Made by a program: the position numbers and the translations under genes
Shown: piece by piece, positions 230 through 57,596 of the stretch
Position numbering within the stretch: the first letter of the stretch is position 1
How the letters are laid out: every line of letters begins with the position of its first letter
The notes under the pieces: generated by a model
What the model was told of the DNA's origin: nothing
The model's database searches: none
Seen by the model: the letters and a program-made list of their open reading frames with translations, nothing else
Assembly: GCA_900128585.1 (NCBI GenBank)
Contig: LT642153.1
Location: 4,007 to 62,608 of the forward strand
Direction: 5' to 3'
Length of the DNA stretch: 58,602 nt
From: Stramenopiles sp. TOSAG23-3
Lineage: Eukaryota > Sar

Positions 230-1459
230 ATGGCAGAGGCTTCAGGGAGGGTTGAGGCAATTCAAGAAAAAATCGATAGAAGGAAGCGGCAGCGACTCTT
301 GGGGCAGAAGAACTCTGGTAAAACGATTCTCGACGATGTGCCTGTGGACGAACGAGATTCTTCTGCGTCGGCATGGTTAAGTAAATGTGCAAATTTGGTA
401 GCCCGCTCAAAGAAAGCAAATGATAACCCTATCGTGAAGAGCCAGGGGGAACACCCTGCGAAATCTACGCCAACCAGCGGGACTGTGGAGAAGAAAAAAG
501 TAGGGAAAAGCAAGCGTGCCAAAATACTTCCTAGCGTATCTTTATTGCAGGATGAAGAGCGTCTTGTTTTCGATGGCAATTTTAACGAGGGCGAGATGAG
601 GGGGGGCAATATTGTAAGCGACAAAGCACAAGGCGGCAAAACAACAAAAATAAAAAAACGCAAAAAAGATAGGTCGAAAAAACGTAAAAAGTTCAAGCTT
701 AGAAAACACGATGACGAGCTCTTAGATGAAAGTACTAGTGGTCTAATACAGAAACAACAAACTCAGATACAAAATAATCCAGTAAAAAGAATTGTTAAAG
801 AGGAAAATGATGAGGTTGAATTGGATGCCTATCTAGCCCGAGCCCGGCGTTTAGCGTCTTCACAGAACCGTACTGCGTTTGCACCTTCTCATTTTTTAAA
901 GACAAATTCTGCCAAGTTAGATGCAAAACAAGTTCCGTCAAGCAATCGGGTTGATACCTTTTCTGGGGTTGTCAGCTTTGCCAACCACATTGCTGAAAGA
1001 CTTGAAAAGTCCACTAAAAATGTTAATATAACAAGAGACAGTGAACGAGAGGATTTGAAGTTGAAGAAACAAGCTCCGCGAAAAGAAGTCGTTGAAAGAG
1101 CTGTTGTTGGCACTGAGGCTAGTGAGCCTCGTACCAAAGCGCAAAAGAAAGATAACACGTCTGCTAGTAGAAGCGTAAACTCGATTATGTCAACTTTGAA
1201 CTACCTTCGCCAATCCAATAGCTCCAAAGAAGAAGTTATTGTAGGCCGAGCAAATGACAAAATTCTCAGAAATGAGAAAGGGGCATCCGGGAAAGAGATC
1301 AAGCTGGAATACCGAGATGATTTGGGGCGTCTTATGACACCAAAGGAAGCATTCCGACAGTTGAGTTACAACTTCCATGGAATAAAACCTTCAAAGAAAA
1401 CCAGAGAGAAACGAGAGCGACAAATGGAAAAAAGATTTGTACGGACAAAAAATACATAA
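230..1459 (+). CDS. SART1: SART-1/Snu66 family tri-snRNP protein
   Basis: This 409-residue, Lys/Arg-rich protein ends with a block of the type LEYRDDLGRLMTPKEAFRQ followed by LSYNFHG and a basic tail. That is the hallmark C-terminus of SART-1/Snu66, a U4/U6.U5 tri-snRNP protein needed for spliceosome activation in the nucleus. An N-terminal SASAWLSK segment followed by basic residues resembles the Trp-containing region near the family's N-terminus, and the middle is low-complexity basic sequence (KKRKKDRSKKRKKFK). The ATG at 230 is the first in frame with this block. Human SART1 is about 800 residues, so this is a short version; missing internal exons cannot be excluded, but the frame is uninterrupted. 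AATAAA lies at 1472-1477, just after the stop. The gene converges on the kinesin gene. The family call rests mainly on the C-terminal motif. Confidence 0.75.
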   Translation: MAEASGRVEAIQEKIDRRKRQRLLGQKNSGKTILDDVPVDERDSSASAWLSKCANLVARSKKANDNPIVKSQGEHPAKSTPTSGTVEKKKVGKSKRAKILPSVSLLQDEERLVFDGNFNEGEMRGGNIVSDKAQGGKTTKIKKRKKDRSKKRKKFKLRKHDDELLDESTSGLIQKQQTQIQNNPVKRIVKEENDEVELDAYLARARRLASSQNRTAFAPSHFLKTNSAKLDAKQVPSSNRVDTFSGVVSFANHIAERLEKSTKNVNITRDSEREDLKLKKQAPRKEVVERAVVGTEASEPRTKAQKKDNTSASRSVNSIMSTLNYLRQSNSSKEEVIVGRANDKILRNEKGASGKEIKLEYRDDLGRLMTPKEAFRQLSYNFHGIKPSKKTREKRERQMEKRFVRTKNT

Positions 1460-1737
1460 TAATTCCATTAAAATAAAAACACTTTGAAAACAAGAAAATT
1501 TATCTTCCTCCAATGTACCGCGAAAGTGAATTTGCTCCTTTTGTCCTACGTTCCTTCATGTCACTGCGAATTTATCTCTGTTCCTGTGATTTTACTAAAT
1601 ATACTCTTTATCATGAGCGTATGACATCAACATTTACTTTATAAAAAACAAAAGATTTGGCCAATTGTTTTGTTTTTAAGAATTACATTGGTATTTTGGT
1701 TTCCCAGCAAATTGCACTGCATGCCGCCCGTTCATCA

Positions 1738-3444
1738 CTACCGTCCTTTCCTTTTCCTGACATTTTTCCCCCTTTGGTTGCGCCTATATTTACCTTTCAG
1801 CGCTCCATTTCGTCCGGTAAGACGAGGGGTAATCAAAGCTTCTTTACCGCACAATGTGGCGGCTTTCGTTAAAATATGTTTAATGTTATCTTTTTCCAAA
1901 GAAGTTTCGCTGTCGTACTGAAGGGCGCTACATATGTCGAGCAAACGCTTGACCTCTACTGCTGCTAAGTTCAATGATTCGATTTCTAGCAGTAAATCGT
2001 TCTTGTTCGTCGCCGTTTTCTTAAACGAAGACCCTTTGCGGGCTTGAACACGTGTCATGTTCTGTATGCTGCGCGCCCGTTGTGCAAACTTTAATGTTGA
2101 CAAGGTTTCTTCGTAATTATCATCGTGGGGAGACAATGCTACTAACAGTGCAGTCTTTGCATCACCTCCCAAGGAGTTCTGAAGAATTCGTGTTAACTTC
2201 GAATCTCTGTAAGGTATGTGCTTCTTGTTCTTGCCCCGCTGTTTTTTTGGTGTGTCTCCTTGCGCATGTTTCGTGATGCTAGTTTTGGATAAAATGCCTA
2301 TGATTTTTCCCAGCGCAGACAAAGACTTGTTGATTGATGCAGCTTCTTTTAACCGGTCTCCTGCAGCTCCAGTTTTCTTAACTTTTTCACTGCCTGCTAA
2401 ATCGACTAAATGCAGCTTGCTTGATTTCTGGAAACCAGTTTTTTTATTTAACTGGTCCAAACGCAAGCACACTAAGCAATGGCTCCTTGAGCTCTCTGCG
2501 TTCATGTTCGTAGAACTTGTGGAACGATGAACAAACCCTTCTTCAATCATTGCTTCGATTTCATCAGCAGTCTCTACTCTTTTTTCTGCCAACCCTGCAA
2601 CATAAACCCCTTCGTTCGTTTTCTCTCTGAGCTGTAAATTTTTGCTGTTTTCTTCGATTAAGTCATTAATTTGCTCATTGTAGATTTCAAACATTGAGGC
2701 AAACAGAGCACGCCCATTTTCTTCACCGCCATCGTTTTTGTAAGTAACGATTTCTTCGCACGCCCTCCCCACGATACCAACCGTATCGGTATTTGTTTTT
2801 CCTGTGCCAAACATTGAAAATGTTTTTCCACTGCCAGTTTGACCGTAAGCAAATATTGTTCCGTTGAAACCTGCGCACATCGCATTCACAATGTTCTTGC
2901 CAATTCCATCATACACCAATTTTTGCGTGCTTTTGGTCCCATAGACATGATCGAATGTGAAGATATCTTTGTTGTACTCAATTTCTTGGCCGTGCGTTTC
3001 GTTAATTTTCAGTTTGTCGCTTATTTTTCCACTTCCAAGGTCTTTCTCTCGAGACACCAATGGTCTAAACCTGGCGGCCACAGCTATGTTGGACATTCCC
3101 GACATTTTCCGTAACTCCTCCGCTTCTTTGTCATGCTGCTCTGCCACAGCTATGTTTTCTTCGCAGATGGCACGATAAGACGAAATATACGACAAAGTAA
3201 GTTTTAGTCTTTGGCGGTCTTTGTCGTTTAATTCTGTTTTCCTTTCTGCCTCCTTTTCTTTCATTTCTTGGACTTTGGCACGCGCGGCACGTTTTCGGGC
3301 TACCGATTGTATCTTCGTGGCCGCATCATTCTCTTGCTGGATTTTTCTCTTTTCTGCATCTGCTTTTTCCTGTGCTTCTTGCTGCTTTCTCTTTGCATCC
3401 ATTTCTAACTGCAATTTTCGCTCTTCCTCTTCCTTTTTCTTCAT
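1738..3444 (-). CDS. Kinesin with N-terminal coiled coil and IQ motif (5' end probably incomplete)
   Basis: The 568 residues shown start at the ATG at 3444. Residues 1-40 are Glu/Lys-rich coiled coil, and residues 40-60 hold an IQ-like calmodulin-binding motif (AATKIQSVARKRAARAK). The kinesin motor runs from about 118 to 460, with NIAVAARFRPL at its start, P-loop GQTGSGKT (201-208), switch I NAESSRSH and switch II LVDLAGSE. INKSLSALG and IPYRDSKLTRILQNSLGG follow. The motor looks kinesin-1-like and lacks the kinesin-14 neck. An insertion of basic residues precedes IPYRDSK. About 100 residues follow, ending in a basic tail. The frame stays open upstream of the ATG to 3474, where a stop TAG coincides with a possible splice acceptor (CATTAG then GCGGAAGAG), so a further 5' exon is likely. 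Role: microtubule motor, cargo unknown. Confidence 0.88.
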   Translation of the reverse strand: MKKKEEEERKLQLEMDAKRKQQEAQEKADAEKRKIQQENDAATKIQSVARKRAARAKVQEMKEKEAERKTELNDKDRQRLKLTLSYISSYRAICEENIAVAEQHDKEAEELRKMSGMSNIAVAARFRPLVSREKDLGSGKISDKLKINETHGQEIEYNKDIFTFDHVYGTKSTQKLVYDGIGKNIVNAMCAGFNGTIFAYGQTGSGKTFSMFGTGKTNTDTVGIVGRACEEIVTYKNDGGEENGRALFASMFEIYNEQINDLIEENSKNLQLREKTNEGVYVAGLAEKRVETADEIEAMIEEGFVHRSTSSTNMNAESSRSHCLVCLRLDQLNKKTGFQKSSKLHLVDLAGSEKVKKTGAAGDRLKEAASINKSLSALGKIIGILSKTSITKHAQGDTPKKQRGKNKKHIPYRDSKLTRILQNSLGGDAKTALLVALSPHDDNYEETLSTLKFAQRARSIQNMTRVQARKGSSFKKTATNKNDLLLEIESLNLAAVEVKRLLDICSALQYDSETSLEKDNIKHILTKAATLCGKEALITPRLTGRNGALKGKYRRNQRGKNVRKRKGR

Positions 3445-3474
3445 TTCTATTTGATTTTGCCGTTCCTCTTCCGC

Positions 3475-10084: not shown

Positions 10085-11179
10085 ATGAAGAAGAGTCGTC
10101 TACAAAATCCGCACGTGCGTAAAATATGCCGCCCAAGACTTTTTTGCCCGAATGCCGTTTGTACCAACTCTGGTGGGTTTAAGGAGCTGCTGCGAGCTCG
10201 TTCTGGAGACTGTTACACTTTTGAATGCGCCACATGCAATGCTTGCCTTTCAGTATGTCCGTCCTGCTCGGCATTGATTCAAATAAAGTCAGCTAGCCTG
10301 GAAATTTGCCAATGCCATAGCTGTGGATTCTTGTCGCCTCGAGAACCACAGTTGTGTGTGTTTCTCGGCTTATCACCACTTCGACCGCTGGAAAGAAAAC
10401 GAAAACGACGGTCGCAGCGAGCCATAAGCGAAGAAAGGGTGATAAATCTAAGTTTTCGCAAATCCCAATGTGACCGTAATGAAAATAATTCTCCGGGTAA
10501 CCGATCCACCGCAAGACTAAGAAAAAAAACAGAGTTTTCGATCGGCACCAACGCTTCTTTACAAAAAAGGAAGCAGTTATTATGGTTTGAAAAATGCGTC
10601 GACCCTTTGATTAGGCAGATGGATATAAATCATTTCAAAAAGAGTCCTTGCATTGTTTTTTCTTCCGAGATGGTCGAACTGCTACGTTGTGGAAAACAAC
10701 TCGGCTATGGCGAGGCGGAAAATGGTTTAAAAGGTGATGTTGAAAATCTTTCGAAAAGATTTTTCGAAGACTTGCCAAATATGTTGAAATTGCGGGAAAC
10801 TATTTTAAAGGAGCCCCTCTGTAATCACGTAGGGAACACATTGGCTATTCATAATCATTCCACGGGCCGATGGAAACATTTAGTAGGACTATTGGGTGAA
10901 CAAAATAGAAACTTCGAACATAAAATACAGGAATGGCAATCTTTAAAAAATGTGTATTTGCCTTTGCTTGACGCTATAAACAAATATTTGAAATTTCTCT
11001 TCACTCGCGTGAAATATTTTCTCACGGGCGCAGAAGGATCAGTGCTTCCCGAAGACATAGGTTACAGTCCTTCTACTAGGCTTGTTGGTCATAATGGTAC
11101 CTTGCAACTTTGCAAACTCCAAGTTTCGCTGCTGCAAAAGCTTTACAGGACTGTGGGCAGCGTGATGCGTACAAAATAA
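10085..11179 (+). CDS. Cys-rich (zinc-ribbon-like) protein, unknown
   Basis: This protein has 364 residues from the ATG at 10085. The first 85 residues hold closely spaced Cys pairs (CPNAVC, CATC, CNAC, CPSC and CQCHSC), which suggests one or two structural zinc sites. Next comes a basic stretch (about 100-160, with ERKRKRRSQR and ARLRKK) that could be a nuclear signal, then a helical C-terminal half with no recognised motif. Function unknown; a nucleic-acid or protein-binding nuclear role is only an inference from the Zn and basic regions. It ends 138 bp from the converging acyl-CoA dehydrogenase. Confidence 0.6.
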   Translation: MKKSRLQNPHVRKICRPRLFCPNAVCTNSGGFKELLRARSGDCYTFECATCNACLSVCPSCSALIQIKSASLEICQCHSCGFLSPREPQLCVFLGLSPLRPLERKRKRRSQRAISEERVINLSFRKSQCDRNENNSPGNRSTARLRKKTEFSIGTNASLQKRKQLLWFEKCVDPLIRQMDINHFKKSPCIVFSSEMVELLRCGKQLGYGEAENGLKGDVENLSKRFFEDLPNMLKLRETILKEPLCNHVGNTLAIHNHSTGRWKHLVGLLGEQNRNFEHKIQEWQSLKNVYLPLLDAINKYLKFLFTRVKYFLTGAEGSVLPEDIGYSPSTRLVGHNGTLQLCKLQVSLLQKLYRTVGSVMRTK

Positions 11180-11317
11180 TGATTGCCAATAACAGGGTAG
11201 ACATAGTAATTTAAATAATAACAACCTTATTTTGATCTCTATTATCTTAAAAGGCGCTGTTAAAACGTTTTCCGAAAATCCAAACTATTCCCAACTGCAT
11301 AGACGGGTGTAGAACAT

Positions 11318-13276
11318 TCATAAGGCATGATCAAAGCTAAATTCTTCTTCTTTCATCGACATTACACTATTGATTGGTGCATGCATTGTAAGCTTGTGCG
11401 ATGCAACTCTTGGGAAAATGTTTTCGAAGTAAAATTCTGCAGACTTCATCTTTGCCTCGTAAAAGGCTTGGTCGCCTTCTCCGGATGCAATCTTTTTTGC
11501 CGCTGCCTCTTCCATTTTCAACCAGTGGTGGCCCATATTTATGTAGCCTGCAACCATCAAGTAATCTTGGGATGCCAAGCCTATGCAGTCACGGTTAGAT
11601 TGTCCTTTGGAGGCAATCCTGTAGGTATTGAAGTGTAAACTTGCGGTCTCTTTCAACAGCCGCCATGCATGGCTCTTCACGGAGGATGATGCGCCACTAA
11701 ACATGAGATCCTTGCAATCCTTGTACAACAGCGAGCAGTGGTAATTTATTGGCTTCAATTTCCCTTCCAACAAAATTTTTCGTCCCAACAAGTCCAATGC
11801 CTGAATTTGGGTCGTCCCTTCCCAGACAGCACTAATGCGGGAATCACGCACAATTTGTTCTTGGCGGTTGCTCTTGATGTAGCCATGCCCCCCGTATACT
11901 TGAATACCCATGTTGGCAGCTTCGACGCCAACTTCAGTTAAAAACCCTTTCAAAATAGGCGTTAAGAACCCGAGGCGGTCTTCAAGCGCTTTTGCGTTTG
12001 CGTCGTCTCCGCGCGCTTCGGCTTCCAACCGTTCGTCGTTGATGAGTCCGCATTCGTACACCATGCTACGCCCTGCCTCTGCAATAACTTTCTGCGTAAG
12101 CAGAAGGCGCCGTACAGTAGGGTGCACGATAATAGGATCGGCAGGGCCATCCGGGTTCTTCTTCCCGCTCAACGACCGCATCGCCAAACGCTCTTTTGCG
12201 TACCACAACGCGCCTTGATACGACAGCTCGGCCGCGGCCACCCCTTGAACCGCTGTTCCAACACGGGACGTGTTAATGAAAGTAAACATATGGTTCAAAC
12301 CTCGGTTTTCTTCACCAAGCATGTACCCCTCTGCATCTTCAAAATTGATCTCGCAAGTAGACGAGCCGTGGCATCCCATCTTATCTTCGATTCGTCCGAT
12401 TTTGCAGCCATTCAACTCTCCCACTTCGCCCGCCTCAGAAACGAGGCGCTTTGGGACCAGAAATAGGGATATGCCTTTTGTGCCTTCTGGGGCGTCCGGC
12501 AGTCTTGCCAGAACGCAATGCATGATGTTATCTGTCAGATCATGCTCTCCACATGAGATGAATATTTTTGTGCCAGTGAGCTTGTAAGTTCCGTCTTCTT
12601 GGGGAACTGCCTTGGTGGATACTTGTCCCAAGTCAGAGCCACATTGGGGTTCAGTTAAACACATCGTGCCAGTCCATTCGCCAGATACCAGACGCGCCAA
12701 ATATTTGTCTTTTAGTTCGTCAGATGCATGAGACACCATGGTGTTTATACACCCTTTGCTTAACCCTGGGTACATTGTCCAGGTGAAATTTGCTGTTGCA
12801 GCCATGTCCGCTGCAAAAAGGCTTAGGGAGTACGGGAGACCCTGGCCACCGTACTCTTCAGAGTTGCTTAAACCCTGCCATCCGCCCTCGACATAAATAT
12901 CGTATGCCTCTTTGTATCCCGGAGGTGTTTTCACGGTGTGTTCGTCGATCCATTCGCACCCATGCTCGTCCCCAACGGCATTTAAGGGCCCAAGCGTTTC
13001 CTCGCAGAACGAAGCGTGGGCCTCCATTACTTGCATGACAAACTCGGAGTCCACTTCGGAGCCACCGGTGTGCTCCATCTTTTTATAGTGCGATTCCACA
13101 TCGAATACATCATTCAGGACAAAGTTCATTTCTTTCAACGGGGCCCTGTAATTTCCGTCCATTGCGATCGAGGTTGTCTGAAAGCCACGTGGTGATATAG
13201 AGGCCGCTGCCGGCTGCCTTGGAAGAAAAGGCTTTTGGCCCACCTTGAACCGTCGGCCTATCGCTCGAAAAAACAT
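11318..13276 (-). CDS. Mitochondrial acyl-CoA dehydrogenase, DmdC-like subgroup
   Basis: This 652-residue FAD enzyme oxidises an acyl-CoA to its enoyl-CoA. The first 40 residues (FFRAIGRRFKVGQKPF, no acidic residues, Ser/Ala/Arg rich) look like a mitochondrial presequence. YRAPLKEMNFVLNDVFD then opens the catalytic part. Family motifs are MCLTEPQCGSDLGQVST (flavin-binding), KMGCHGSSTCEINF, VYGGHGYI and SAVWEGTTQIQALDLLGRK, the last placing the C-terminal FAD/dimer contacts. The extra C-terminal helical domain and the opening motif are those of the DmdC (3-methylmercaptopropionyl-CoA dehydrogenase)/long-form ACAD group of bacteria and many protists, rather than short-chain ACADs of about 400 residues. 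Substrate could be methylmercaptopropionyl-CoA or a medium/long acyl chain; sequence alone does not decide. The subgroup is common in bacteria, so ancient transfer or a mitochondrial ancestor is plausible. Confidence 0.9.
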   Translation of the reverse strand: MFFRAIGRRFKVGQKPFLPRQPAAASISPRGFQTTSIAMDGNYRAPLKEMNFVLNDVFDVESHYKKMEHTGGSEVDSEFVMQVMEAHASFCEETLGPLNAVGDEHGCEWIDEHTVKTPPGYKEAYDIYVEGGWQGLSNSEEYGGQGLPYSLSLFAADMAATANFTWTMYPGLSKGCINTMVSHASDELKDKYLARLVSGEWTGTMCLTEPQCGSDLGQVSTKAVPQEDGTYKLTGTKIFISCGEHDLTDNIMHCVLARLPDAPEGTKGISLFLVPKRLVSEAGEVGELNGCKIGRIEDKMGCHGSSTCEINFEDAEGYMLGEENRGLNHMFTFINTSRVGTAVQGVAAAELSYQGALWYAKERLAMRSLSGKKNPDGPADPIIVHPTVRRLLLTQKVIAEAGRSMVYECGLINDERLEAEARGDDANAKALEDRLGFLTPILKGFLTEVGVEAANMGIQVYGGHGYIKSNRQEQIVRDSRISAVWEGTTQIQALDLLGRKILLEGKLKPINYHCSLLYKDCKDLMFSGASSSVKSHAWRLLKETASLHFNTYRIASKGQSNRDCIGLASQDYLMVAGYINMGHHWLKMEEAAAKKIASGEGDQAFYEAKMKSAEFYFENIFPRVASHKLTMHAPINSVMSMKEEEFSFDHAL

Positions 13277-15023
13277 GTCAAGAGGGGAGGGGGGGGGAGC
13301 GGGGTGAAAGTTTGAGTGTGTTGTGGAAACTAGGGATGGTACTTCGCAGTAAGCAGATTCTTACCAAAATGCTGGGTTTCTAGGTGAAAGATTAGCGAAA
13401 TACGGTGTACTTTGCGGATTGCGTATCCATATCTAACTACTTGCGTTATACCACAGACCCGGAGAGCATAAACAGTAAAATGCGTCGCATGCGTCGTAAC
13501 GAAAGAAAGGAGGAGGATGATGGAAAGGAGGAAGAGGGGAAGACTGACTCTGACCACGAAGTAATAGTATTATTAGTCAAAGCGTCAGTACGTACTTATA
13601 ATTCGTATATATAATTATAAATATTTCTAAAAAAATTATAATTACATGTACACATCATATAAATTCAGCTTTTTTCGCCGTTTTGTTTTCGCTGTAGTTT
13701 TATTTTAGCCCTATATAGAGCTACTAGACTATGTATTAATGTACATATGATGAAGCGTTTAGAGAGTGGATGCCATCGATAATTCCAATAATAATTTAAT
13801 AATTATTTTAAATCATAATACACATAATTACTTAACATATAATTTCATAATTTATATTTTTATATACTAATAATGTGTTTTGTTTCTAAAACTGAAAGTT
13901 AATATTAAGGGAATTGAATCTTCATTATTCTTCACAGTTGAGAAGTTCGAAAGTTTTTGTTGTTCTCACTGTATCGTATCCATTTTTCCACTTGCTTTTG
14001 CTGTCCAACACCTACACTTTTTTTTAAATTTATAATAACAATTTTTTACATGCTGTACTTACATTTTTATTGTTACTTAGACGACTGTATCTATCGGTAT
14101 TATTATACGCACGTCTTTTTAAGATTTTTTTTTCCGTCCGTCTCGTCCCTCGTCCCTCGTCCCGTCCGTCCATCCCTGACTATTTTATTATTATTTTATC
14201 GAAATGTATTATAATAAATAGTAGTACTACTATATTTATATAAGCTATTTATTAACAAATAATTTTTTGCCTATTTCTTCAGCAATATTTTAGATTATTA
14301 TTTATTATAGACTATGTACTAATAATACAGTACTAGAACAGAGACGACCGGTCATCGTAGTCGTCTTTCATCATTTTTTAGCTCATAATACATCTACGTA
14401 GTCTTCTATCTATCTATCTCCTCCATCCTACCTCCACCTGTAAAAAAATTTAAAAAAAAACACGCACGAGCTGCTAATGCTAATTAATGCGCACAATTTT
14501 TTGTTTCTGTTCCTTGCTATTTCAATATTAATATTGTTTTAATATAGGCATTATTATCATTCTAAAATATGCACCCTATCTACTTAGTTATCTTCTTCAT
14601 TATATCTTAACACTATATAATTTTATCTCTACGGTAGATTACAATAAGTATACTACTATATAGAAGTACTATTTTTTAGTCGTCTTCTATCTATTGAAAT
14701 TTGCTTATTGCTAGAATGCATGATGCAGCAACAAAAACAGCAAATAATAAAAAAAAAAAAAAAAATTATAATAATATATTTCTTCATCATCGTCGAAAAA
14801 AAAAAATATACAATAATAATAATTATTATTAGTTAATAATTGTATTAGAGTCTATATATTTGTACATTGCTGTTAGTATTTTATTAACGGGTGGAAGGGA
14901 TGAAATATAAATCAAAGAAATTGCAGAGAAAAACGTTGTGCCTATAAATTACAACGTCAACCACTACTGCATTGTTTTTCTCCTTCTCCTTTCTTTCCAA
15001 AGTTGCTGAAGTCGACAAGAACC
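13277..15023. other. Long AT-rich divergent spacer (1.7 kb)
   Basis: No gene is seen. The spacer holds AT-rich sequence, a CGTC/CCTCGT pyrimidine-rich repeat at about 14136-14172, poly-A runs near 14750-14765 and AT palindromic stretches. A G-run (13286-13296) lies just upstream of the dehydrogenase start. Frames at 13405 and 13957 have low-complexity translations and are not believed. Confidence 0.5.
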
Positions 15024-17276
15024 ATGACCGATAACAATGAAATAATAACTTTCGAGACCGGATGGGGCAATATTGTGCCGCAGCTGGATCGTTTGAAAAC
15101 TATGTTGCAGACGGACTACAAAGACAACAAGCAGAAATCGTTTGACAAAAAATCTTACATGAAGGTGTACACTTCCGTGTATAACATGTGCACGCAGAGG
15201 CAGCCTCACAATTGGTCTGAACGTTTGTACGAGCGACACGGATCAACAATCAGAGACTACTTGAGGAAAGTCGTATTGCCGCAGATGCAGCAAGCTGATG
15301 CCAAAAATCTACTTTTGCAACTTCAGCGGCACTGGAAAAACCACAAAGTCATGAACAAGTGGATGCGACTGTTTTTCACTTACCTCGACCGGTTTTACGT
15401 GTTGCACCACTCTTTGCAATCGCTGGAAGATGTGGGGACACAGGCGTTCCGAACCGATCTGTACGACAAAGTAAAGAGTGCCGTGGCGGCCGAAGTGTTG
15501 GGATTGATTGAGGAAGACCGGAACAACAGGCCCGTGGACTTCGCGCTTTTGAGAAATATCGTGTCCGTCTTTGAAGCCATGGGCATGGGCACGACTAATA
15601 TATACCAATCTGATCTAGAAGAACCGTTCCTGAAAGTTTCACGAGAGTTTTATAGCACCAAAGGTGTCGAGTGGGTCACCACGGACGACACGCCGTCGTA
15701 CATGAAGAAAACGGAGCAAGCCCTTGCAAATGAAGCTGGACGAGTCAAGGAGTACATGATTGGAATGACGGAGTCCAAAATTTTGAAAGTGTTGGAAGAC
15801 GAGCTTCTAAAAAAGCACGAGATTGCATTGTTGGAAAAGGAGGGTAGCGGGTGCAAGGCATTGCTTGAGAACGAGTCCCTAGAGCACTTGAATCGAATGT
15901 ATCGTCTGTTTCTCAGAATACCGGATGGCCTTCTGCCGATGGCCGCCTGTATAAAATCGCACATTGAAGAAAAGGGGGTGGGGGTCATCAACGATCGCGC
16001 GCATGAAATCAAAGAGAGTGGAAAGGATAGTACGTCCGACCCCGCTTTTGTTCAAAATTTGATGGGTCTTCACGAAAAGTTTAAGTCCATCATCGAGCAG
16101 CAGTTTGATTCTAACGCACTGTTTCAGAAGGCCATGAAGGAAGCGTTTGAAGTCTTCGTAAACCGTGACGCCGGGTCACACTCCAACGCAGAAATGCTTG
16201 CTTGCTACTGCGATAGGTTCTTAAAATCGGGAGGTGATAGGCTTACGGAGAAGCAAGTTGAGGAAGAGCTGGACAAAGTCGTGCAGCTGTTTACATTCTT
16301 GCAAGACAAGGACATGTTTGGTGAAATTTACCGTAATTTACTAGCTAAGCGGTTGCTGAACCATCGGTCGGCCAGTGATGATGCCGAGAAAAGCATGATT
16401 GGCAAGCTAAAACTGCGCTGCGGCGCGCAGTTTACTCAAAAAATGGAAGGTATGATAAATGATTTAGCCATTGGTAAAGATCATCAAGAGAAGTTTAGTA
16501 GCACTCCCGAGATGTCCCAGCTATCCCCCGACTTCTCTGTACAAGTGTTAACGACAGGATTTTGGCCGTCGTATGTTACCTTCGAAATGGAACTTCCTAC
16601 CACGTTGCAGGCTTGCGTCGATGCCTTTCAATCGTACTACGAAAAAGATACAAACCATAGAAAGCTCAAATGGGTATACTCTCTAGGGAGCAGCAACGTG
16701 CGCATGTCTTTGAAAGACAAGAAAGGGAAGAAAGCCAATTTTGATCTGGCAGTGTCGACTCTGCAAGCATCGGTATTGGTCATGTTTCATGACTTTGAAG
16801 GAGAACTGTCATTCGAAGAAGTCAGCGCCAAACTGAACGTACAAGCGGGAAGGGACGCTTCCGTTGCCAAGTCGATAGTGAAGAAGACCCTCCACTCGTT
16901 GTCTTGCGGGAAACACAAAGTTTTAAAGAAGAATCCGAAGGGTAAAAGCATCAACTCGAACGACCGGTTTAGTGCAAACGCAAGTTTCAAATCCAGAACG
17001 ACTCGGATCCGTATTCCGATGGCATCTTTGGAAAGTTCGCACAACGCGAAAAAAATTGAAGAGGATCGAACCCATACCATCGAAGCTGCCATAGTGCGAA
17101 TCATGAAGACCAGGAAAGAAATGCAGCACAGTCTTTTAATTTCAGAAGTTGTACAACAATTGATATTTTTTAAGCCAGCCCCAAAAGCTGTAAAGCGGTG
17201 CATTGAAAATCTGATTGACCGAGAATATTTAGAAAGGCACGAGAGCCAACCAGGTCACTATCGTTACTTAGCATGA
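15024..17276 (+). CDS. CUL1: Cullin-1-type SCF ubiquitin-ligase scaffold
   Basis: The first ATG is at 15024 (an in-frame TTG lies at 15003), giving 750 residues, the normal cullin length. The N-terminal cullin repeats start with TGWGNIVPQLDRLKTML and contain the Skp1/F-box-contact region (VYTSVYNMCTQR). The cullin-homology domain includes LFTFLQDKDMFGEIYRNLLAKRLL and the winged-helix part ends in HYRYLA. The neddylation motif IVRIMKTRKEMQH places the acceptor at Lys 695. Among cullins it is most like CUL1, which links Skp1/F-box substrate receptors to the Rbx1 RING; an F-box-like protein is encoded at 39059. It is intronless. It acts in nucleus and cytosol, controlled by NEDD8 attachment. Confidence 0.92.
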   Translation: MTDNNEIITFETGWGNIVPQLDRLKTMLQTDYKDNKQKSFDKKSYMKVYTSVYNMCTQRQPHNWSERLYERHGSTIRDYLRKVVLPQMQQADAKNLLLQLQRHWKNHKVMNKWMRLFFTYLDRFYVLHHSLQSLEDVGTQAFRTDLYDKVKSAVAAEVLGLIEEDRNNRPVDFALLRNIVSVFEAMGMGTTNIYQSDLEEPFLKVSREFYSTKGVEWVTTDDTPSYMKKTEQALANEAGRVKEYMIGMTESKILKVLEDELLKKHEIALLEKEGSGCKALLENESLEHLNRMYRLFLRIPDGLLPMAACIKSHIEEKGVGVINDRAHEIKESGKDSTSDPAFVQNLMGLHEKFKSIIEQQFDSNALFQKAMKEAFEVFVNRDAGSHSNAEMLACYCDRFLKSGGDRLTEKQVEEELDKVVQLFTFLQDKDMFGEIYRNLLAKRLLNHRSASDDAEKSMIGKLKLRCGAQFTQKMEGMINDLAIGKDHQEKFSSTPEMSQLSPDFSVQVLTTGFWPSYVTFEMELPTTLQACVDAFQSYYEKDTNHRKLKWVYSLGSSNVRMSLKDKKGKKANFDLAVSTLQASVLVMFHDFEGELSFEEVSAKLNVQAGRDASVAKSIVKKTLHSLSCGKHKVLKKNPKGKSINSNDRFSANASFKSRTTRIRIPMASLESSHNAKKIEEDRTHTIEAAIVRIMKTRKEMQHSLLISEVVQQLIFFKPAPKAVKRCIENLIDREYLERHESQPGHYRYLA

Positions 17277-22926: not shown

Positions 22927-24146
22927 ATGATCTTTTCTGGTTTTATTTCAAAAGCAGCAAGAAAGTGCAACTCGGTGCCTTTGCGCACCATTGCTTCTGC
23001 GCCTCGGCAGGCTCGCGGGACACCTGCGCATATAACCGATCGATGTGCGCTTTTAGACGCTCGTAAAGATAATTTGCCTCCCAACAGTTTGACATGGCGT
23101 GCATTTTATGACTCTTCGATCGGAAACGATGGGGCTGGGGCAATAATAACAGACCCACTGTTTTTCACTATCCCAGTGGACGACCATGGCTTTCACCGAG
23201 GCCATTGTGTTTTTGATACTTGCACTGTTTCTGGGTCGAAATGCTTTGGTTTGGACTTTCATCTGGACAGGTTTTTGCAATCGGCATCGAGGGCTCGAAT
23301 TGACCATTCGTACTCAAAAGATTGGCTTCGAGACACCATTTTGAGGACTATTGCTGCGTCGCAGCAGCGAGAAAATACTTTCGTGCGGTACTGGTTAACT
23401 TCTGGTAAGTCAGGTGCTTCGTTCCTGAGCACGATGCAAACAGCTTCTAACAACAACATTTTTTCAACACTCCTATGTGCTTTCCCATTCACTCTGCAGG
23501 CCGTGGTGATTTTGGCATAGTGCCTTCCCCTGAAACTACCTCCGATCCTCGTTTCTATGCAGTGGTGCACGACTACGGTATGGAAAAAACGCGGGAAAGG
23601 GAGGAAGGTGTTGCAGAAGTATTTGTGAAAGATGTCCCTTTAAAACCAAAGCTTCTAGCGGAAGTAAAGAGCAATAATTATATGCTCAATGCATTGTTGA
23701 CTCTTCGTGCAAAAGAACTTGGTGGGTCGCTCGGAATAGCTGTCTCTGAAGATGGCCGCTTGCACGAAAGTAGTATTGCAAATGTTGGGATCGTCACGGA
23801 TGATGGAGTTTTCAAAACTCCTCATTTTGATGGAATCTTGGCTGGGACCAGTCTGAAGCGGATGCATTCATTAATTGCAGATGTACTTGCGGCTGGGCAT
23901 TTAAATGGCTTTGAATTTTGCGATATTTATGCGGATGAAGCACTTCGTGCATCAGAAGTTATATTTTTTGGTGGTGGTTTTTGCACTCCAGTCGTAGAGC
24001 TTGATGGCAAGCGCATTGGCAATGGATGCCCCGGGGATGTGTTCAAGAGTTTCGATCGTATCATGAGAGCAGACATGGTGATGGATTTTGAGACCGACAA
24101 TATCCCATATGAAATGTTCGAGAAATCGAAAATCACGCCCCATTAG
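22927..24146 (+). CDS. Class IV PLP aminotransferase (D-amino-acid transaminase-like), one intron
   Basis: Exon 1 is 22927-23404 and exon 2 23500-24146, giving 374 residues. The 95-nt intron has GTAAGT at 23405 and CTCTGCAG ending at 23499; joining restores VRYWLTSG followed by RGDFGIVPS, conserved in this fold. Other family blocks are RGHCVFDTCTV and FHLDRFLQSASRARI. Also present are EVKSNNYMLNALL (Lys 216 is the likely PLP Schiff-base lysine), LHESSIANVGIV (the ES.N phosphate-binding motif) and GILAGTSLKR. The family covers branched-chain and D-amino-acid aminotransferases and aminodeoxychorismate lyase. This subtype resembles the D-amino-acid-transaminase-like proteins of plants and algae. 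The first 40 residues are basic with no acidic residue, so a mitochondrial or plastid target peptide is likely. Substrate undetermined. Confidence 0.88.
23405..23499 (+). other. Spliceosomal intron, 95 nt
   Basis: The GTAAGT donor and poly-pyrimidine-rich CACTCTGCAG acceptor flank a segment that breaks the aminotransferase frame. Removal joins two conserved halves in phase 1. Confidence 0.9.
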
Positions 24147-42035: not shown

Positions 42036-42488
42036 ATGTCGAAAAAACGTCCTCGGTCAGAGTCAACAGAAGGGAACGACGATCGCTTGGCAATAGCAGA
42101 GAAACATTTGCTTAGCGTGTTGCAAAAGCTAGACATTTTTGAAAATGAGTTGTCGGATAGTCTGAAGGACAAAGCAGTAGATGGTATTGCTGGTAACCAT
42201 GAGGAGGCCCGGGATGCAGTCCTGCAAAAGTTAGCAGATAGTGTTATGGGGTATCAAAACTCTTTAGTGACGCTTGTAGATTGGTGTAAAGAAACAGAGA
42301 AGAGCAAAGAGTTTCCAGATATCAAAGTGCCGGAAAGTTACTACAAAAGGATCTTTGAAGACAACGAGCACTTCACTAATCCCGAGATCGATGTAACCAA
42401 AAATCTTTTAGAACTCAAAGATCAAAAGAAACAACTGGAGCACGCCGATTTTATCTTCAGGAAGGTGGCTGAAGGAATACAAAAATAG
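42036..42488 (+). CDS. Small helical protein, possibly Mediator subunit 10
   Basis: The first ATG is at 42036 (the frame also reaches a TTG at 41997), giving 150 residues. After a basic start (SKKRPRSES) the protein is helical and acidic. The stretch DIKVPESYYKRIFEDNEHFTN, followed by a long helix (LLELKDQKKQLEHADFIFRKV), recalls the MED10 pattern (VP..VYEYID.GRNP, then helix), and the length suits MED10. The match is suggestive only; other small helical subunits would fit. It converges on the SARNP gene, 394 bp apart. Confidence 0.5.
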   Translation: MSKKRPRSESTEGNDDRLAIAEKHLLSVLQKLDIFENELSDSLKDKAVDGIAGNHEEARDAVLQKLADSVMGYQNSLVTLVDWCKETEKSKEFPDIKVPESYYKRIFEDNEHFTNPEIDVTKNLLELKDQKKQLEHADFIFRKVAEGIQK

Positions 42489-42882: not shown

Positions 42883-43875
42883 TTAGTTGCGATTGAAACG
42901 AGCATTTCGCTTCCGACGGCGTGCTGCTTCTTCCTTGGAAACTTTCTTCTTCTTTTTCTCTGGCACTACAACTTTTCTCCTATTCTTTTTGTTCTTCTGG
43001 TTGTTATTCTTTCCACCAGATTTTTGCCCTGTCTTGAAACTGCCGATGCGGTTGTTCCGCTCCGGTGTTTTGCTCCTGTTTTTGTTCTGTCGGCCTTGGT
43101 TCGTGTTGTTGTTTCGTCGCTTTTTCGCGCTAGGACTTTGCTCTCGTGCCCTCGCGTTATTCTCATTGCCTCGTTTTCGCTTATTCTTTTTCTTTCCCTG
43201 AGGAGTATTGGCTCTTTGGTTGTTGTTTCCCTTCTTCTTTTTGTTCGGAGTATTGGCTCTTTGGTCGTTGTTTCCCTTCTTTTTCTTCTTCTTGCCTTTG
43301 GGGGGGTTTGCACCACTTGCGTTCCTCTCAGATTCAGGAGGAGGTGGGACGAACCCAAACCGCTTTTGTCGCCTGAGCAATTTCACTTGTTCCACAAGAG
43401 GATCAACGTAGCCAAATTCTTTCGCTCGAGCAACCCGTTTGTCGAATTCTTCATCAGACATATCTTCAACTTTGGACTTCGTTGCCTTTGGCGCTGTCGC
43501 TTTGGGCATTTCAGTGCCAAAGCGTTTTGCTCTTTCTACGAGACGAGCGAACTTTTCTTGCTCGTCGTCCAGGTCGTCTGTCGCGCCGGCTGCCTCTTCG
43601 GCTACGCTTTCTTTTGCTGCGCTTGCGCCTGCCTTAGCGGTTTTTGCAGGAGACTTCTTCTTGCTCTTCGGTGGGGAGGCAGGCTCCGCTTCTTCGTCTG
43701 CATTATCCTCGCCGCCATCTTCCACGGCATCCTCGGTGCCTAACAATTCCGCGTCCAGGGCCTCTTCCAATCGCTCGATCAGGGCGGCCTTCAACCCGGA
43801 CGTGTCGAGGCTTCGCTTCTTCAGTTCGTCTCGCAACTCTGCAACCCTAAGCGCTCTTGGGTTTATGTCTGACAT
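42883..43875 (-). CDS. SARNP: SAP-domain ribonucleoprotein, SARNP/Tho1-like
   Basis: The 330-residue protein starts with a SAP domain (residues about 9-43, LRVAELRDELKKRSLDTSG, then LKAALIERLEEAL), which binds DNA/RNA. In the middle are two copies of the SARNP/Tho1 motif: KFARLVERAKRFG and KRVARAKEFGYVD followed by KLLRRQKRFG. The C-terminal half is a Lys/Asn/Arg-rich tail with repeated KKKKGNN-QRANTP units. The yeast Tho1/human SARNP (CIP29) family works with TREX and the DEAD helicase UAP56 in nuclear mRNA export. The tail is longer than in SARNP (210 residues). The repeated RFG/FGY motifs match the family's helicase-binding pattern. Confidence 0.83.
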   Translation of the reverse strand: MSDINPRALRVAELRDELKKRSLDTSGLKAALIERLEEALDAELLGTEDAVEDGGEDNADEEAEPASPPKSKKKSPAKTAKAGASAAKESVAEEAAGATDDLDDEQEKFARLVERAKRFGTEMPKATAPKATKSKVEDMSDEEFDKRVARAKEFGYVDPLVEQVKLLRRQKRFGFVPPPPESERNASGANPPKGKKKKKKGNNDQRANTPNKKKKGNNNQRANTPQGKKKNKRKRGNENNARAREQSPSAKKRRNNNTNQGRQNKNRSKTPERNNRIGSFKTGQKSGGKNNNQKNKKNRRKVVVPEKKKKKVSKEEAARRRKRNARFNRN

Positions 43876-47779: not shown

Positions 47780-50140
47780 TCATCGTGGGCTAGCACTAAT
47801 GTTCCCACCATCAACAGTGAATATGCACCCAGTTGTTTTCTCGCTAACAGCAAGGTGTAAAAATGCCCGCGCAACATCCACCGACAGCACCTCACGTTTC
47901 AGCAAATTGCTCTTGAAATATTCTGTGGCTGTCAGCCCTCTGCTCTTGGCGCGTTCTTCGACCAGCTTCATGTCAAACAGATTTGTACGAACACGGTCAG
48001 GGTTTACTCCATTGGAGGTAATCCCGTTCGTTCCATATTCAATGGCATATTGCCTCATTAATGCTAATGTTGCCGCTTTCGCGACAACATACGGACCCAG
48101 CTGGGGTCCTGGGTTTAAAGGCGCTTTCGAAACATTATAAAGGAGGGACCCCCCTACTCCTTGGGCCAGCATACACTGCACAACGGAAGAACTGACGATT
48201 TGATGGCCAAAAAAATTTATGTTCATACTTCGCGACAGATCGTCTTCATTGCACGATGCCATGCCTGGTGCAGCCTGAATCACTATCCCTGCGTTTGATA
48301 CCAGGATGTCAATCCCACCAAAGATAAAAGAAGCTTGGTGTACCGAGTTTGCCACGGCAACACTGTTGGTTACATCAACTTGTGCGCCGGCTACTTCAAA
48401 CCCTAACTTTGATAGTCTTTGAACTTCGTCGTCCACTCGGTCCTTTCTTACGTCAGCAATAAAGATACACGCACCTGCGTTGGCAAACAATTCTGCGGTG
48501 GCTAAACCTATACCGGATGCTCCCCCAGTAATATATGCCACTTTACCATCTAACGCACCTTGCTTCTTCGCGCCTATTTTCAATTTTCTCTGTTCTAATT
48601 CCCAATATTCGCATTCAAACAGATGGGACTCTGACACTGGGCGATACCCGCCAAGCGCCATGCAGTTTAAAATGACTGGCACGGTGTGCTCGTATATATC
48701 TGCAGCAATCCTCGCTGCCTTGAGCGTTTTTCCCACCGTTACTAGTCCCATCCCTTCGATTAGGATTACTCTTGGCAAGGGGTCTAGTTCAATTTTTTCC
48801 CCGTTCTTGTTATTGCGAAGGAAATAGGCATGGTAGCTTTCTTCGTATTCCTGTAATTTTGACTCGCAAAATTGAAACAAAGCTTTGTACATATCTCCCC
48901 TTGAAACATTGTCAATTGAATTGCCCATGTTGTAAAAGCAACTAATGCCTCTTACCACTAAAGGGCATCCCTTCGTGCGTATGACATGGTCCGGTGTTAT
49001 TGTTCCAATCTGACTCCATTCTTCACACTGGGAACTGTGAATAAAGGCTTCGACGACAGGATTCTTCCGAATGCTTAAAATCCATGAACGTGAACTCCGT
49101 TTCCGAAAAACACCTCGAAATGCGTTCATAACACACGATTTAAAATCATCAGAAAGCATCAAGCAGTTAACATAACCCGGTTTTGACAGCGAGTTGCGAT
49201 TAAAATATGCAGGCTGTGGATTCGGCAAATAAGGAGTTAACAGTGCTGGCAATTTCATACGGCATTTGTTGACGATGTACTTTCTTGCTATTTCGACGCA
49301 TTTTATATGCATCTCGTATGATTCTCTGGCGGTTCTTCCCCATGTAAACAAACCGTGTTGCAACAAAATCAAGCAATCAACGTTTGGGTTCTTTTCGTAG
49401 TGTTTGTCACAGAGTACTGCCAACTTTATCCCAGGCATTGCATACGGGATCACACCGACAACGATGCCATGGGGCGCAAACGCTTCCTGGATTGCTGTGG
49501 TCGAATGTTGTTCGCCTAAATCGCCGATGGTGACAATACTATCTGCATGGCTGTGATCTACGAATTTGTACGGGAGCATTGCGTGCAGCAGGGTTTCTAC
49601 ACTCGGATTTGGAGAACTAGCGTCAACCATATGTGTGCGCAATTCGTTTACCATTTGTGGGTCGCTTAGTGCCTCGAGCTTCAAAAGTTTTCGGCAGTGC
49701 GCGGTATCGACTTGTGGAAAACCTTCGGGGGGGATCATGTCCAGTCCGTAGCCGCTACCTTTTACAGCAGTGAGATCAATTGTCTCCCCTGTTATAACCC
49801 TCTTTGTCAGTTTCACGGACGTGTTTCCACCTCCATGAAGGACGAGATCTGCCTCTTTTCCAATCAAATTTGAAGTGTAGCACCGTAGAGCTAAATCTTT
49901 TCCCCACGCTCCACCGTACTTTCTTACGTAACTTTGGGCGTCCGCTTCCGAGTACTGAGGAAAGCCACTTGGTGCTTTCGAGTCAACCGCAGAGCTGCTG
50001 CAAGGATTCCCATTTAGCTGATATGCCAATTTTTGCATACGTCGACGAGATGACTCGGAGGCGGCTACTCGCGAAGCTTCAGTTGAAAAAGAACAACAAC
50101 CATTTTTTTGGCACGTAGACTTGTTGTGCACACTGTCCAT
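47780..50140 (-). CDS. Bifunctional class II aldolase / short-chain dehydrogenase fusion
   Basis: At 786 residues this matches the bacterial 'bifunctional aldolase/short-chain dehydrogenase' family (rhamnulose-1-phosphate aldolase/lactaldehyde dehydrogenase-type RhaDE). The aldolase part (about 60-430) has LVLHGGGNTSVK, KGSGYGLDMI, the metal-binding DHSHAD (His 196 and 198) and ILLQHGLFTWG. The C-terminal SDR part (about 530-786) has the NAD-binding TGGASGIG (538-545), SNAGIV and the catalytic Tyr-x3-Lys (Tyr 684, Lys 688). In bacteria it cleaves the phosphorylated deoxysugar and oxidises the aldehyde. The first 60 residues are an extra Ser/Cys-rich N-terminus without a clear targeting signal. 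Substrate in this organism is unknown. Since the fusion is typical of bacteria, lateral acquisition is likely, though similar proteins occur in some protists. Confidence 0.87.
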   Translation of the reverse strand: MDSVHNKSTCQKNGCCSFSTEASRVAASESSRRRMQKLAYQLNGNPCSSSAVDSKAPSGFPQYSEADAQSYVRKYGGAWGKDLALRCYTSNLIGKEADLVLHGGGNTSVKLTKRVITGETIDLTAVKGSGYGLDMIPPEGFPQVDTAHCRKLLKLEALSDPQMVNELRTHMVDASSPNPSVETLLHAMLPYKFVDHSHADSIVTIGDLGEQHSTTAIQEAFAPHGIVVGVIPYAMPGIKLAVLCDKHYEKNPNVDCLILLQHGLFTWGRTARESYEMHIKCVEIARKYIVNKCRMKLPALLTPYLPNPQPAYFNRNSLSKPGYVNCLMLSDDFKSCVMNAFRGVFRKRSSRSWILSIRKNPVVEAFIHSSQCEEWSQIGTITPDHVIRTKGCPLVVRGISCFYNMGNSIDNVSRGDMYKALFQFCESKLQEYEESYHAYFLRNNKNGEKIELDPLPRVILIEGMGLVTVGKTLKAARIAADIYEHTVPVILNCMALGGYRPVSESHLFECEYWELEQRKLKIGAKKQGALDGKVAYITGGASGIGLATAELFANAGACIFIADVRKDRVDDEVQRLSKLGFEVAGAQVDVTNSVAVANSVHQASFIFGGIDILVSNAGIVIQAAPGMASCNEDDLSRSMNINFFGHQIVSSSVVQCMLAQGVGGSLLYNVSKAPLNPGPQLGPYVVAKAATLALMRQYAIEYGTNGITSNGVNPDRVRTNLFDMKLVEERAKSRGLTATEYFKSNLLKREVLSVDVARAFLHLAVSEKTTGCIFTVDGGNISASPR

Positions 50141-57034: not shown

Positions 57035-57233
57035 CACTAACGCTAAATACCAAAACATATCTAACCTAATTAAAAATACTTTTGGCACATTACGCGTCGC
57101 TCACAAAGTTAGCAGCAGGTCCCTTGCACTCACTAACATATTTCTCTTTGAAACGGCCCGAGCAGTGCTCTAGGGGTCTTACAAAGCAAAATAGTTCAAG
57201 TATTTTTGGATGCCAACAATAAGGAGCAGCAAC
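57035..57233. other. Short convergent spacer
   Basis: 3' flanks of the polycystin and DYNLT genes. No other feature is seen. Confidence 0.5.
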
Positions 57234-57596
57234 CTAGAAACTCACTACCAAAACGTTGGCAATGCAATACATGGTTTTATTTCCATCCCCCTTCTTGTCA
57301 GTTGGCCATTTGACCGTTACTAAGCCGTCGTTACTGGGGTCTACCCACAGCGAGTTGGCTGAATGAACACCGGCACCGTTTTTCTGCATTATCATAGCTG
57401 TTACAACATATTTGAAAGGTTTCCCTAGATCCACCAACTCTTCCATACATTTTTCACATATTTTGTCGATCCATTGTGCTACCTTCTTTCCATCAAAATC
57501 CTCGTTTTTGATCACCGACTCGATTGCAGGAATCACTATTTGTTCTATTTCCTCTGACACAAAAGCGAGCTCTTCAGAGGACTGAATGTCTTGCAT
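57234..57596 (-). CDS. DYNLT1: Tctex1-type dynein light chain
   Basis: This 120-residue protein matches DYNLT1/Tctex-1 end to end: FVSEEIEQIVIPAIESVIKN helix, KVAQWIDKICEKCMEELVDL, then LGKPFKYVVTAMIMQKNGAG, HSANSLWVD, and the C-terminal strand MYCIANVLVVSF. Its length is standard (about 113). A short insert (PTDKKGDGNK) precedes TMYCI. DYNLT light chains dimerise on dynein intermediate chains in cytoplasmic and inner-arm axonemal dyneins. The gene converges on the polycystin channel. No targeting signal. Confidence 0.92.
   Translation of the reverse strand: MQDIQSSEELAFVSEEIEQIVIPAIESVIKNEDFDGKKVAQWIDKICEKCMEELVDLGKPFKYVVTAMIMQKNGAGVHSANSLWVDPSNDGLVTVKWPTDKKGDGNKTMYCIANVLVVSF

What the first reader, a model, noticed from the sequence alone, without database searches (positions are those of the whole stretch)
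230..57596. Strict alternation of coding strand, with short tail-to-tail and long head-to-head spacers
The first 14 genes alternate + and - without exception, and 23 of 27 adjacent pairs are on opposite strands. Convergent ends lie 66-474 bp apart (one pair overlaps), divergent starts 742-1747 bp apart, and the four same-strand pairs 607-774 bp apart. Random strand choice would not give this. It suggests selection for tail-to-tail packing, with shared AT-rich divergent promoter regions, or a genome-wide rule for transcription topology.
Basis: seen in the sequence. Interest (0 to 1): 0.75.

Follow-up and report, generated by a model that had tools for sequence, protein, structure and literature searches.

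The report
Neighbouring genes mostly face opposite ways
In the stretches examined of this uncultured protist's genome, neighbouring genes sit on opposite DNA strands more often than chance would give, yet the arrangement seems to save no space, because each gene appears to carry its own start region and its own end region.

Summary
In four other contigs, 61 of 86 pairs switch (0.71; p 6.5e-5 against 0.5), so it is not local. Caller controls are clean. A neutral inversion model gives 0.53-0.555, less than observed.

Spacers are additive within error: medians are divergent 1119, tandem 736, convergent 294, so alternation saves no measurable space. Microsatellite tracts are enriched 200-350 bp upstream of start codons, in divergent and tandem spacers alike. 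A divergent spacer thus looks like two promoters back to back, not one shared core.

Protein trees ally the organism with stramenopiles, near MAST-4. The stramenopile Ectocarpus has a published tendency to opposite-strand neighbours, with the reverse spacer geometry. My best reading is selection against co-directional neighbours through interference or torsion. That mechanism is inferred, not shown. The sample is 2.4% of the assembly. New variant of a known kind.

The parts
230..1459 (+). gene 1, SART-1 family
   Evidence: Pfam PF03343; HMM
1738..3444 (-). gene 2, kinesin
   Evidence: PF00225
4521..5510 (+). gene 3, histone deacetylase; 3' end overlaps gene 4 by 46 bp
   Evidence: PF00850
5465..6379 (-). 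gene 4, GT25-like glycosyltransferase (HMM bounds 5562-6328 differ)
   Evidence: PF01755
7122..8684 (+). gene 5, L7Ae domain
   Evidence: PF01248
8865..9335 (-). gene 6, no family; ORF and HMM call only (HMM end 9624)
10085..11179 (+). gene 7, no family
11318..13276 (-). gene 8, acyl-CoA dehydrogenase
   Evidence: PF02770 and others
15024..17276 (+). gene 9, cullin
   Evidence: PF00888
17571..18710 (-). gene 10, BNR-repeat protein
   Evidence: PF13088
19939..20826 (+). gene 11, EF-hand
   Evidence: PF00036
21075..21989 (-). gene 12, no family
22927..24146 (+). gene 13, class IV aminotransferase; intron 23405-23499
   Evidence: PF01063 on both exons; sequence; HMM
24621..25754 (-). gene 14, no family (last of the alternating run)
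26528..27934 (-). gene 15, VPS9
   Evidence: PF02204
28683..29768 (-). gene 16, no family
31149..32606 (+). gene 17, DNA primase large subunit
   Evidence: PF04104
32918..33400 (-). gene 18, weak hits below cut-off
34520..38992 (+). gene 19, gamma-tubulin complex component
   Evidence: PF04130
39059..40795 (-). gene 20, F-box-like below cut-off
42036..42488 (+). gene 21, weak hit below cut-off
42883..43875 (-). gene 22, SAP domain
   Evidence: PF02037
45279..45911 (+). gene 23, TPR
   Evidence: PF00515
46156..47172 (-). gene 24, no family
47780..50140 (-). gene 25, aldolase II + short-chain dehydrogenase fusion
   Evidence: PF00596, PF00106
51155..52585 (+). gene 26, Ric8-like
   Evidence: PF10165
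53360..57034 (+). gene 27, EF-hand + polycystin-type channel; intron 54644-54742
   Evidence: PF13499, PF08016; sequence; HMM
57234..57596 (-). gene 28, Tctex-1 (HMM start 57101)
   Evidence: PF03645
18909..18959 (.). microsatellite tracts about 200-250 bp upstream of gene 10 start
33592..33642 (.). AAG tracts about 190-240 bp upstream of gene 18 start
14749..14823 (.). A / AAT tracts about 200-275 bp upstream of gene 9 start
26014..26027 (.). TA tract about 260-273 bp upstream of gene 14 start, in a tandem spacer
28190..28219 (.). ATA/AT tracts about 256-285 bp upstream of gene 15 start, in a tandem spacer

Best explanation
This is a stretch of the nuclear genome of an uncultured stramenopile allied with MAST-4, in which adjacent genes switch strand in about 71-74% of pairs, as a nearest-neighbour rule with no sign of longer memory. 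Each gene is a separate transcription unit with its own module: about 560 bp upstream, including a zone 200-350 bp before the start codon enriched in microsatellites that I read as the promoter / nucleosome-poor region, and about 150 bp downstream. Spacer length is the sum of the two modules that meet. The excess of alternation is most likely kept by selection against co-directional neighbours. Read-through or positive torsion from the upstream gene would disturb the next promoter in a tandem pair, while divergent promoters share favourable negative torsion and convergent ends can run into each other at little cost. Shown: the excess in five contigs pooled, additivity within error, and the enriched zones. 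Inferred: the promoter role of the zone, selection, and interference or torsion as its cause.
For: 23/27 in the window and 61/86 in four other contigs. Mean 6.8 switches per 10-gene window in 9 windows, against a peak between 4 and 5 in Plasmodium, Tetrahymena, Arabidopsis and human (PMC4083563, passages). No calls in 300 kb of simulated background; in six replicates of 108 randomly flipped gene units, called and true switch rates agree to within 0.015. A neutral length-weighted inversion model gives 0.53-0.555; p 0.003 for the four other contigs against 0.56, taking pairs as independent. Additive spacers: mean(div)+mean(conv)-2*mean(tan) = -75, 95% interval -446 to 268; with medians -52.5, interval -254 to 225 (score >= 20). 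Tract bases at 200-350 bp: divergent 1336 of 2757 against null 671+-106; tandem 312 of 825 against 161+-41; in 29 divergent spacers of 1 kb or more coverage is 0.123 there and 0.034 at the midpoint; seen separately in the window and in the four other contigs. The torsion model of PMC4154641 (passages) predicts orientation-dependent coupling over about 1 kb.
Against: Surviving tandem pairs are not spaced more widely than additivity predicts, as they should be if read-through were costly. A codon-score proxy does not differ between tandem and opposite-strand pairs (p 0.13). Two of four extra contigs are not significant alone. The additivity intervals are wide, so saving or sharing of up to about 250-450 bp per divergent-convergent set is not excluded. 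Tracts are also common further out: any tract at 150-450 bp in 62 of 82 divergent sides and at 450-750 bp in 43 of 74, so the zone is an enrichment, not an exclusive site. There are no RNA data, and no relative's DNA was compared. The torsion model predicts mutual repression for convergent pairs (more in bacteria than in eukaryotes), which alternation does not avoid.
Confidence: 0.45

Rival explanations
1. Packing and shared bidirectional promoters: alternation is kept because paired promoters and paired terminators save space.
For: Alternation is real. In Ectocarpus, divergent pairs under about 600 bp share one nucleosome-depleted region (PMC7784034, passages).
Against: Spacers are additive within error, so no saving is seen. 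1 of 41 divergent spacers is under 600 bp, and it rests on a doubtful HMM intron. Tracts are enriched near each start and poor at the midpoint. Ectocarpus has the reverse geometry: divergent median 409, tandem 2293.
Confidence: 0.12
2. Neutral rearrangement: inversions break long, promoter-side spacers more often than short terminator-side ones, which raises alternation without selection.
For: By simulation, length-weighted breakpoints give 0.53-0.555 rather than 0.50; if breaks were tolerated 27 times more often on the 5' side, 0.73 would result.
Against: Measured or free lengths give at most 0.555; observed 61/86, p 0.003 against 0.56. A 27-fold bias is not suggested by the spread of convergent spacers, most of which lie between 66 and 527 bp.
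Confidence: 0.2
3. Inherited stramenopile layout: an alternating ancestral order is frozen because rearrangements move whole convergent pairs, with no current benefit.
For: Ectocarpus, another stramenopile, also shows the tendency (PMC7784034, passages). Moving whole tail-to-tail pairs preserves alternation (reasoning, not simulated).
Against: Gene loss and duplication should steadily create tandem pairs (reasoning). The order shows no longer memory. No relative was compared.
Confidence: 0.18
4. Artefact of gene calling or of picking an unusual window.
For: 9 of 28 window genes have no family above cut-off. The sample is about 306 kb of 12.88 Mb and only from long contigs. Of the genes outside the window only 10 of 90 were scanned against Pfam; 8 of those 10 have a family above cut-off.
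Against: Caller controls are clean. Four contigs not chosen for orientation repeat the pattern when pooled.
Confidence: 0.05

Closest known systems
Ectocarpus (brown alga) opposite-strand gene arrangement (PMC7784034, passages read)
   Same: Stramenopile; [quoted passage not shown] 61.7% of genes flanking TSS-adjacent regions were in divergent pairs; the nearest comparable figure here is 82 of 111 genes (74%) with a divergent upstream neighbour.
   Different: There divergent spacers are shorter (median 409) than tandem (2293) and close pairs share one nucleosome-depleted region. Here divergent spacers are the longest (1119 against 736) and the microsatellite zones are separate.
Chromera and Vitrella head-to-head excess (PMC4501334, one passage)
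   Same: A head-to-head excess over chance is stated for these chromerids.
   Different: Stated only for genes less than 1000 bp apart, as data not shown; nothing on tail-to-tail pairs or alternation in the passage.
Yeast inter-CDS spacing (PMC3128071, passages read)
   Same: Order divergent > tandem > convergent; convergent spacers hold no promoter. Fungi pooled show the same order, means 1343, 1230, 688 (PMC2871058, passages).
   Different: In S. cerevisiae (old regions) means are 489, 412 and 205, so divergent is well short of additive; the authors suggest shared promoters for the shorter divergent peak. Here spacing is additive within error.
Unidirectional gene clusters of dinoflagellates and trypanosomes (PMC7789003, PMC5177918, PMC4083563; passages)
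   Same: A genome-wide departure from random gene orientation.
   Different: Opposite sign: 0.15-2.32 changes per 10 genes in the dinoflagellates quoted, 6.8 here.

Membership tests
Ectocarpus-type alternating gene organisation | Adjacent genes on opposite strands more often than chance | tested here: met
   61/86 outside the window, 23/27 inside
Ectocarpus-type alternating gene organisation | Divergent spacers shorter than tandem ones | tested here: not met
   Divergent median 1119 > tandem 736; p 8.6e-6 that divergent is longer, score >= 20 set
Ectocarpus-type alternating gene organisation | Shared nucleosome-depleted region in close divergent pairs | not testable with these tools
   No chromatin data; 1 of 41 spacers is in the <600 bp range where it occurs in Ectocarpus
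Bidirectional-promoter gene pairs | Divergent starts under 1000 bp apart (definition in PMC2871058, passage) | tested here: not met
   12 of 41 divergent spacers are under 1000 bp (29 are 1000 or more); so not met for most
Bidirectional-promoter gene pairs | One promoter core shared between the two starts | tested here: inconclusive
   Start-anchored tract enrichment on both sides with a tract-poor midpoint speaks against it, by sequence only
Unidirectional gene clusters | Long runs of same-strand genes | tested here: not met
   Longest same-strand run is 4 genes; 66 of 87 runs are single genes (score >= 20)
Stramenopiles, MAST-4-allied (organism) | Proteins group with MAST-4 or other stramenopiles | tested here: met
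   Partial CPSase: 53% identity to a MAST-4 protein; clade of query, MAST-4 and one environmental row 100/100, query with MAST-4 91/73, long branches flagged by the tool. Primase falls with oomycete, Ectocarpus and MAST rows, support 84/86, midpoint root

The most novel reading that the evidence does not exclude
Compact stramenopile genomes obey a genome-wide nearest-neighbour rule against co-directional genes, maintained by transcription-generated torsion or read-through interference. It is independent of promoter sharing and of genome compaction, and is the mirror image of dinoflagellate unidirectional arrays. Microsatellite-rich zones mark a separate promoter for each gene.
Probability: 0.3. 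Interest if true: 0.75.

Novelty: new variant of a known kind. Interest (0 to 1): 0.5.

Why it matters
In the passages I read, gene orientation is called random in Plasmodium, Tetrahymena, Arabidopsis and human, and strongly co-directional in Symbiodinium and Trypanosoma. A genome that alternates at about 0.72 while its spacers stay additive would separate alternation from the usual explanation, promoter sharing to save space. It would then offer a clean system for asking whether transcription interference or torsion shapes gene order. The start-anchored microsatellite zone gives a possible sequence mark of promoters in a lineage known here only from environmental sequence.

Tried and rejected
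Packing was rejected because spacing is additive within error. A shared divergent core is disfavoured by tract positions. A neutral inversion model was simulated in six forms; only an assumed 27-fold breakpoint bias reaches 0.73. A codon-score proxy for expression and gene length showed no difference between tandem and other pairs (p 0.13 and 0.97). Word search upstream of starts: the strongest positional clustering was of microsatellite words (TATTAT, AAAAAA and the like), which led to the tract test. Some other words also stood out and were not followed: AAAACG near the start (18 of 27 within 100 bp), and TGAAAT, ATCTTA/TAAGAT and GGAAGG/CCTTCC by count. No tRNA and no Rfam family was found in the window. 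A U2 search rang in no genome, controls included, so it is uninformative. The 'longest tract' distance is not a good anchoring test on its own: its median (288) is close to the value expected for uniform placement (280) and it correlates weakly with spacer length (rho 0.29, p 0.016). The circular-shift test is the one relied on. HMM bounds give three doubtful introns in window genes 4, 6 and 28, which distort four spacers; the window ranges quoted therefore use plain ORF bounds, while the pooled statistics use HMM bounds. Rows dropped before the pooled counts: 3 of 124 calls with score under 15, and 3 merges of same-strand fragments less than 50 bp apart. Without the merges the figures are 84 of 116 in all and 61 of 89 outside the window. 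Trees used part of the listed hits: 50 of 120 and 31 of 120. On novelty: PMC2871058 has a supplementary figure and table on orientation in 64 species, some described as less random; I did not see them, so further precedents may exist.
Full report
WHAT WAS CHECKED. The window is bases 4007-62608 of contig C413 in an unnamed assembly of 12,883,446 bases in 660 contigs. A simple ORF list, Pfam and a home-made intron-aware HMM gene caller agree on 28 genes. Two apparent extra same-strand pairs are single genes split by GTAAGT...CAG introns: 23405-23499 in the aminotransferase and 54644-54742 in the EF-hand/polycystin gene. The first 14 genes alternate, 23 of 27 pairs switch, and every stated spacer range is exact, including the one overlap (46 bp, HDAC against GT25). 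19 of 28 genes have a Pfam family above its cut-off; the other 9 rest on open frames and coding score.

IS IT MORE THAN CHANCE, AND IS IT LOCAL? Because the window was picked for its pattern, I fetched four more long contigs. They were chosen because the kinase search placed matches far along them, not for orientation: C409 1-70000, C412 whole, C418 whole and C415 1-60000. Together with the window this is about 306 kb, 2.4% of the assembly. At score >= 15, with same-strand fragments closer than 50 bp merged, 61 of 86 pairs outside the window switch strand (0.71, interval 0.60-0.80, p 6.5e-5 against 0.5), and 84 of 113 overall. The six settings tried give 0.685-0.735 outside the window. By contig at score >= 20: C409 18/22, C412 14/23, C418 13/15, C415 16/25; C412 and C415 are not significant alone. 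The rule looks nearest-neighbour: the chance of a switch is 58/77 after a switch and 21/29 after none (Fisher p 0.80). In nine non-overlapping 10-gene windows the mean is 6.8 changes. The passages I read report a peak between 4 and 5 for Plasmodium, Tetrahymena, Arabidopsis and human (PMC4083563) and 0.15-2.32 for dinoflagellates (PMC7789003, PMC5177918).

CONTROLS. On 300 kb of simulated background the caller made no calls. When 108 real gene units were randomly flipped, shuffled and rejoined six times, called switch rates followed the true ones (for example 0.453 called against 0.449 true; largest gap 0.015). The caller does not create alternation. Of the 90 genes outside the window I scanned 10 against Pfam; 8 have a family above its cut-off.

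SPACER LENGTHS ARE ADDITIVE WITHIN ERROR. Pooled medians are divergent 1119 (n 41), tandem 736 (n 29) and convergent 294 (n 43). In the four other contigs the mean of the divergent and convergent medians is 730 and the tandem median is 721; in the window 683 and 760. In the score >= 20 set, mean(div)+mean(conv)-2*mean(tan) is -75 with a bootstrap interval of -446 to 268, and the median version is -52.5, interval -254 to 225. So each gene brings about 560 bp upstream and about 150 bp downstream whatever its neighbour, and an alternating layout is not measurably more compact than a tandem one; the intervals leave room for a modest saving. The order divergent > tandem > convergent is itself ordinary: yeasts and fungi show it too, though in S. 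cerevisiae divergent regions are shorter than additive (PMC3128071; PMC2871058; passages).

MICROSATELLITES ARE ENRICHED AT A FIXED DISTANCE FROM STARTS. Words such as TATTAT, AATAAT, TCTTCT and poly-A/T cluster roughly 200-350 bp before start codons. Simple tracts (mono >= 8, di >= 5 units, tri >= 4 units) occur at 4.56 per kb in divergent, 3.28 in tandem and 1.74 in convergent spacers, and 0.25 in coding sequence. Triplet tracts are in 33 of 41 divergent, 19 of 29 tandem and 3 of 43 convergent spacers (the classes differ in length). Against circular shifts within each spacer, tract bases at 200-350 bp are 1336 of 2757 (null 671+-106) in divergent and 312 of 825 (null 161+-41) in tandem spacers. 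In the 29 divergent spacers of 1 kb or more, coverage is 0.123 in that zone and 0.034 at the midpoint. The window alone (356 of 663, null 151+-44) and the other four contigs alone (1292 of 2919, null 680+-107) both show it. It is an enrichment, not an exclusive site: 62 of 82 divergent sides have a tract at 150-450 bp, but 43 of 74 also have one at 450-750 bp. I read the zone as the nucleosome-poor part of each promoter; that is inference. A divergent spacer then holds two promoters back to back.

COULD NEUTRAL REARRANGEMENT DO IT? Inversions whose breakpoints fall in proportion to spacer length do favour alternation, because long divergent and short convergent spacers break unevenly. Simulation gives 0.548-0.555 with measured lengths, 0.53 with free lengths and 0.498 with equal lengths. 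The four other contigs exceed 0.56 with p 0.003, taking pairs as independent. Only an assumed 27-fold breakpoint preference for the 5' side reaches 0.73.

WHOSE GENOME. Primase large subunit places the query with environmental proteins among oomycetes, Ectocarpus and a MAST-labelled protein (tree of 50 of the 120 listed hits, midpoint root). The partial CPSase read from contig C415 has a MAST-4 protein as its best named hit (53% identity; 1487 bits, against 1082 for the best hit outside this group). It forms a 100/100 clade with that protein and one environmental row (query with MAST-4 alone 91/73), on long branches that the tool flags (tree of 31 of 120). Kinesin, Tctex-1, a gamma-tubulin complex protein, a polycystin-type channel and an ODAD1-like protein fit a flagellate. 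Two MAST-4 co-assemblies have 15,508 and 16,260 predicted genes (PMC8163842, passages). At 2.59 kb per gene this assembly would hold about 5,000, so it is probably partial. The words strand and orientation do not occur in the main text of the two MAST genome papers searched by term (PMC5778133, PMC8163842).

COMPARISON WITH WHAT IS KNOWN. [quoted passage not shown] The nearest like figure here is 82 of 111, 74%. Geometry is reversed: there divergent 409 and tandem 2293 with shared nucleosome-depleted regions under about 600 bp; here divergent is longest, and 1 of 41 is under 600 bp, by a doubtful call. So this does not look like an array of bidirectional promoters. Chromera and Vitrella are said to have a head-to-head excess among genes under 1 kb apart (PMC4501334). 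I recall that the original Ectocarpus genome paper reported the alternation, but it is not held. Ten paper searches were made; supplementary orientation tables for 64 species in PMC2871058 were not seen, so other precedents may exist.

MOST LIKELY WORKING. Shown: excess alternation in five contigs pooled, additive modules within error, start-anchored tract enrichment. Inferred: selection against co-directional neighbours through read-through or torsional interference. Against it: tandem survivors are not spaced wider than additivity predicts, and a codon-score proxy shows no difference. A breakpoint bias or an inherited order remain live rivals. The work is limited by a 2.4% sample of long contigs, no RNA and no relative's DNA.

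Noticed in passing
window spacers, e.g. 18909-18959, 33592-33642, 14749-14823: Triplet and mononucleotide microsatellites are enriched 200-350 bp upstream of start codons in the five contigs examined.
   Followed up: yes
53360-57034: EF-hand region and polycystin-type channel are one gene with a 99-bp intron.
   Followed up: partly
4521-5510 and 5465-6379: The coding ends of the histone deacetylase and GT25-like genes overlap by 46 bp tail to tail.
   Followed up: partly
upstream regions of five contigs: The word AAAACG clusters within 100 bp before start codons (18 of 27 occurrences in the 500 bp examined).
   Followed up: no
17571-18710: BNR-repeat (sialidase-like) protein with what looks by eye like a signal peptide.
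   Followed up: no
C412 336-5348 (L017): Three + strand calls only 14 and 28 bp apart, possibly one gene split by a frame break or an intron.
   Followed up: no
C413 1-4006 (L009): The contig before the window reads N in the held copy.
   Followed up: no
C418 3235-13056 (L023-L024): A single uninterrupted 3273-residue reading frame.
   Followed up: no
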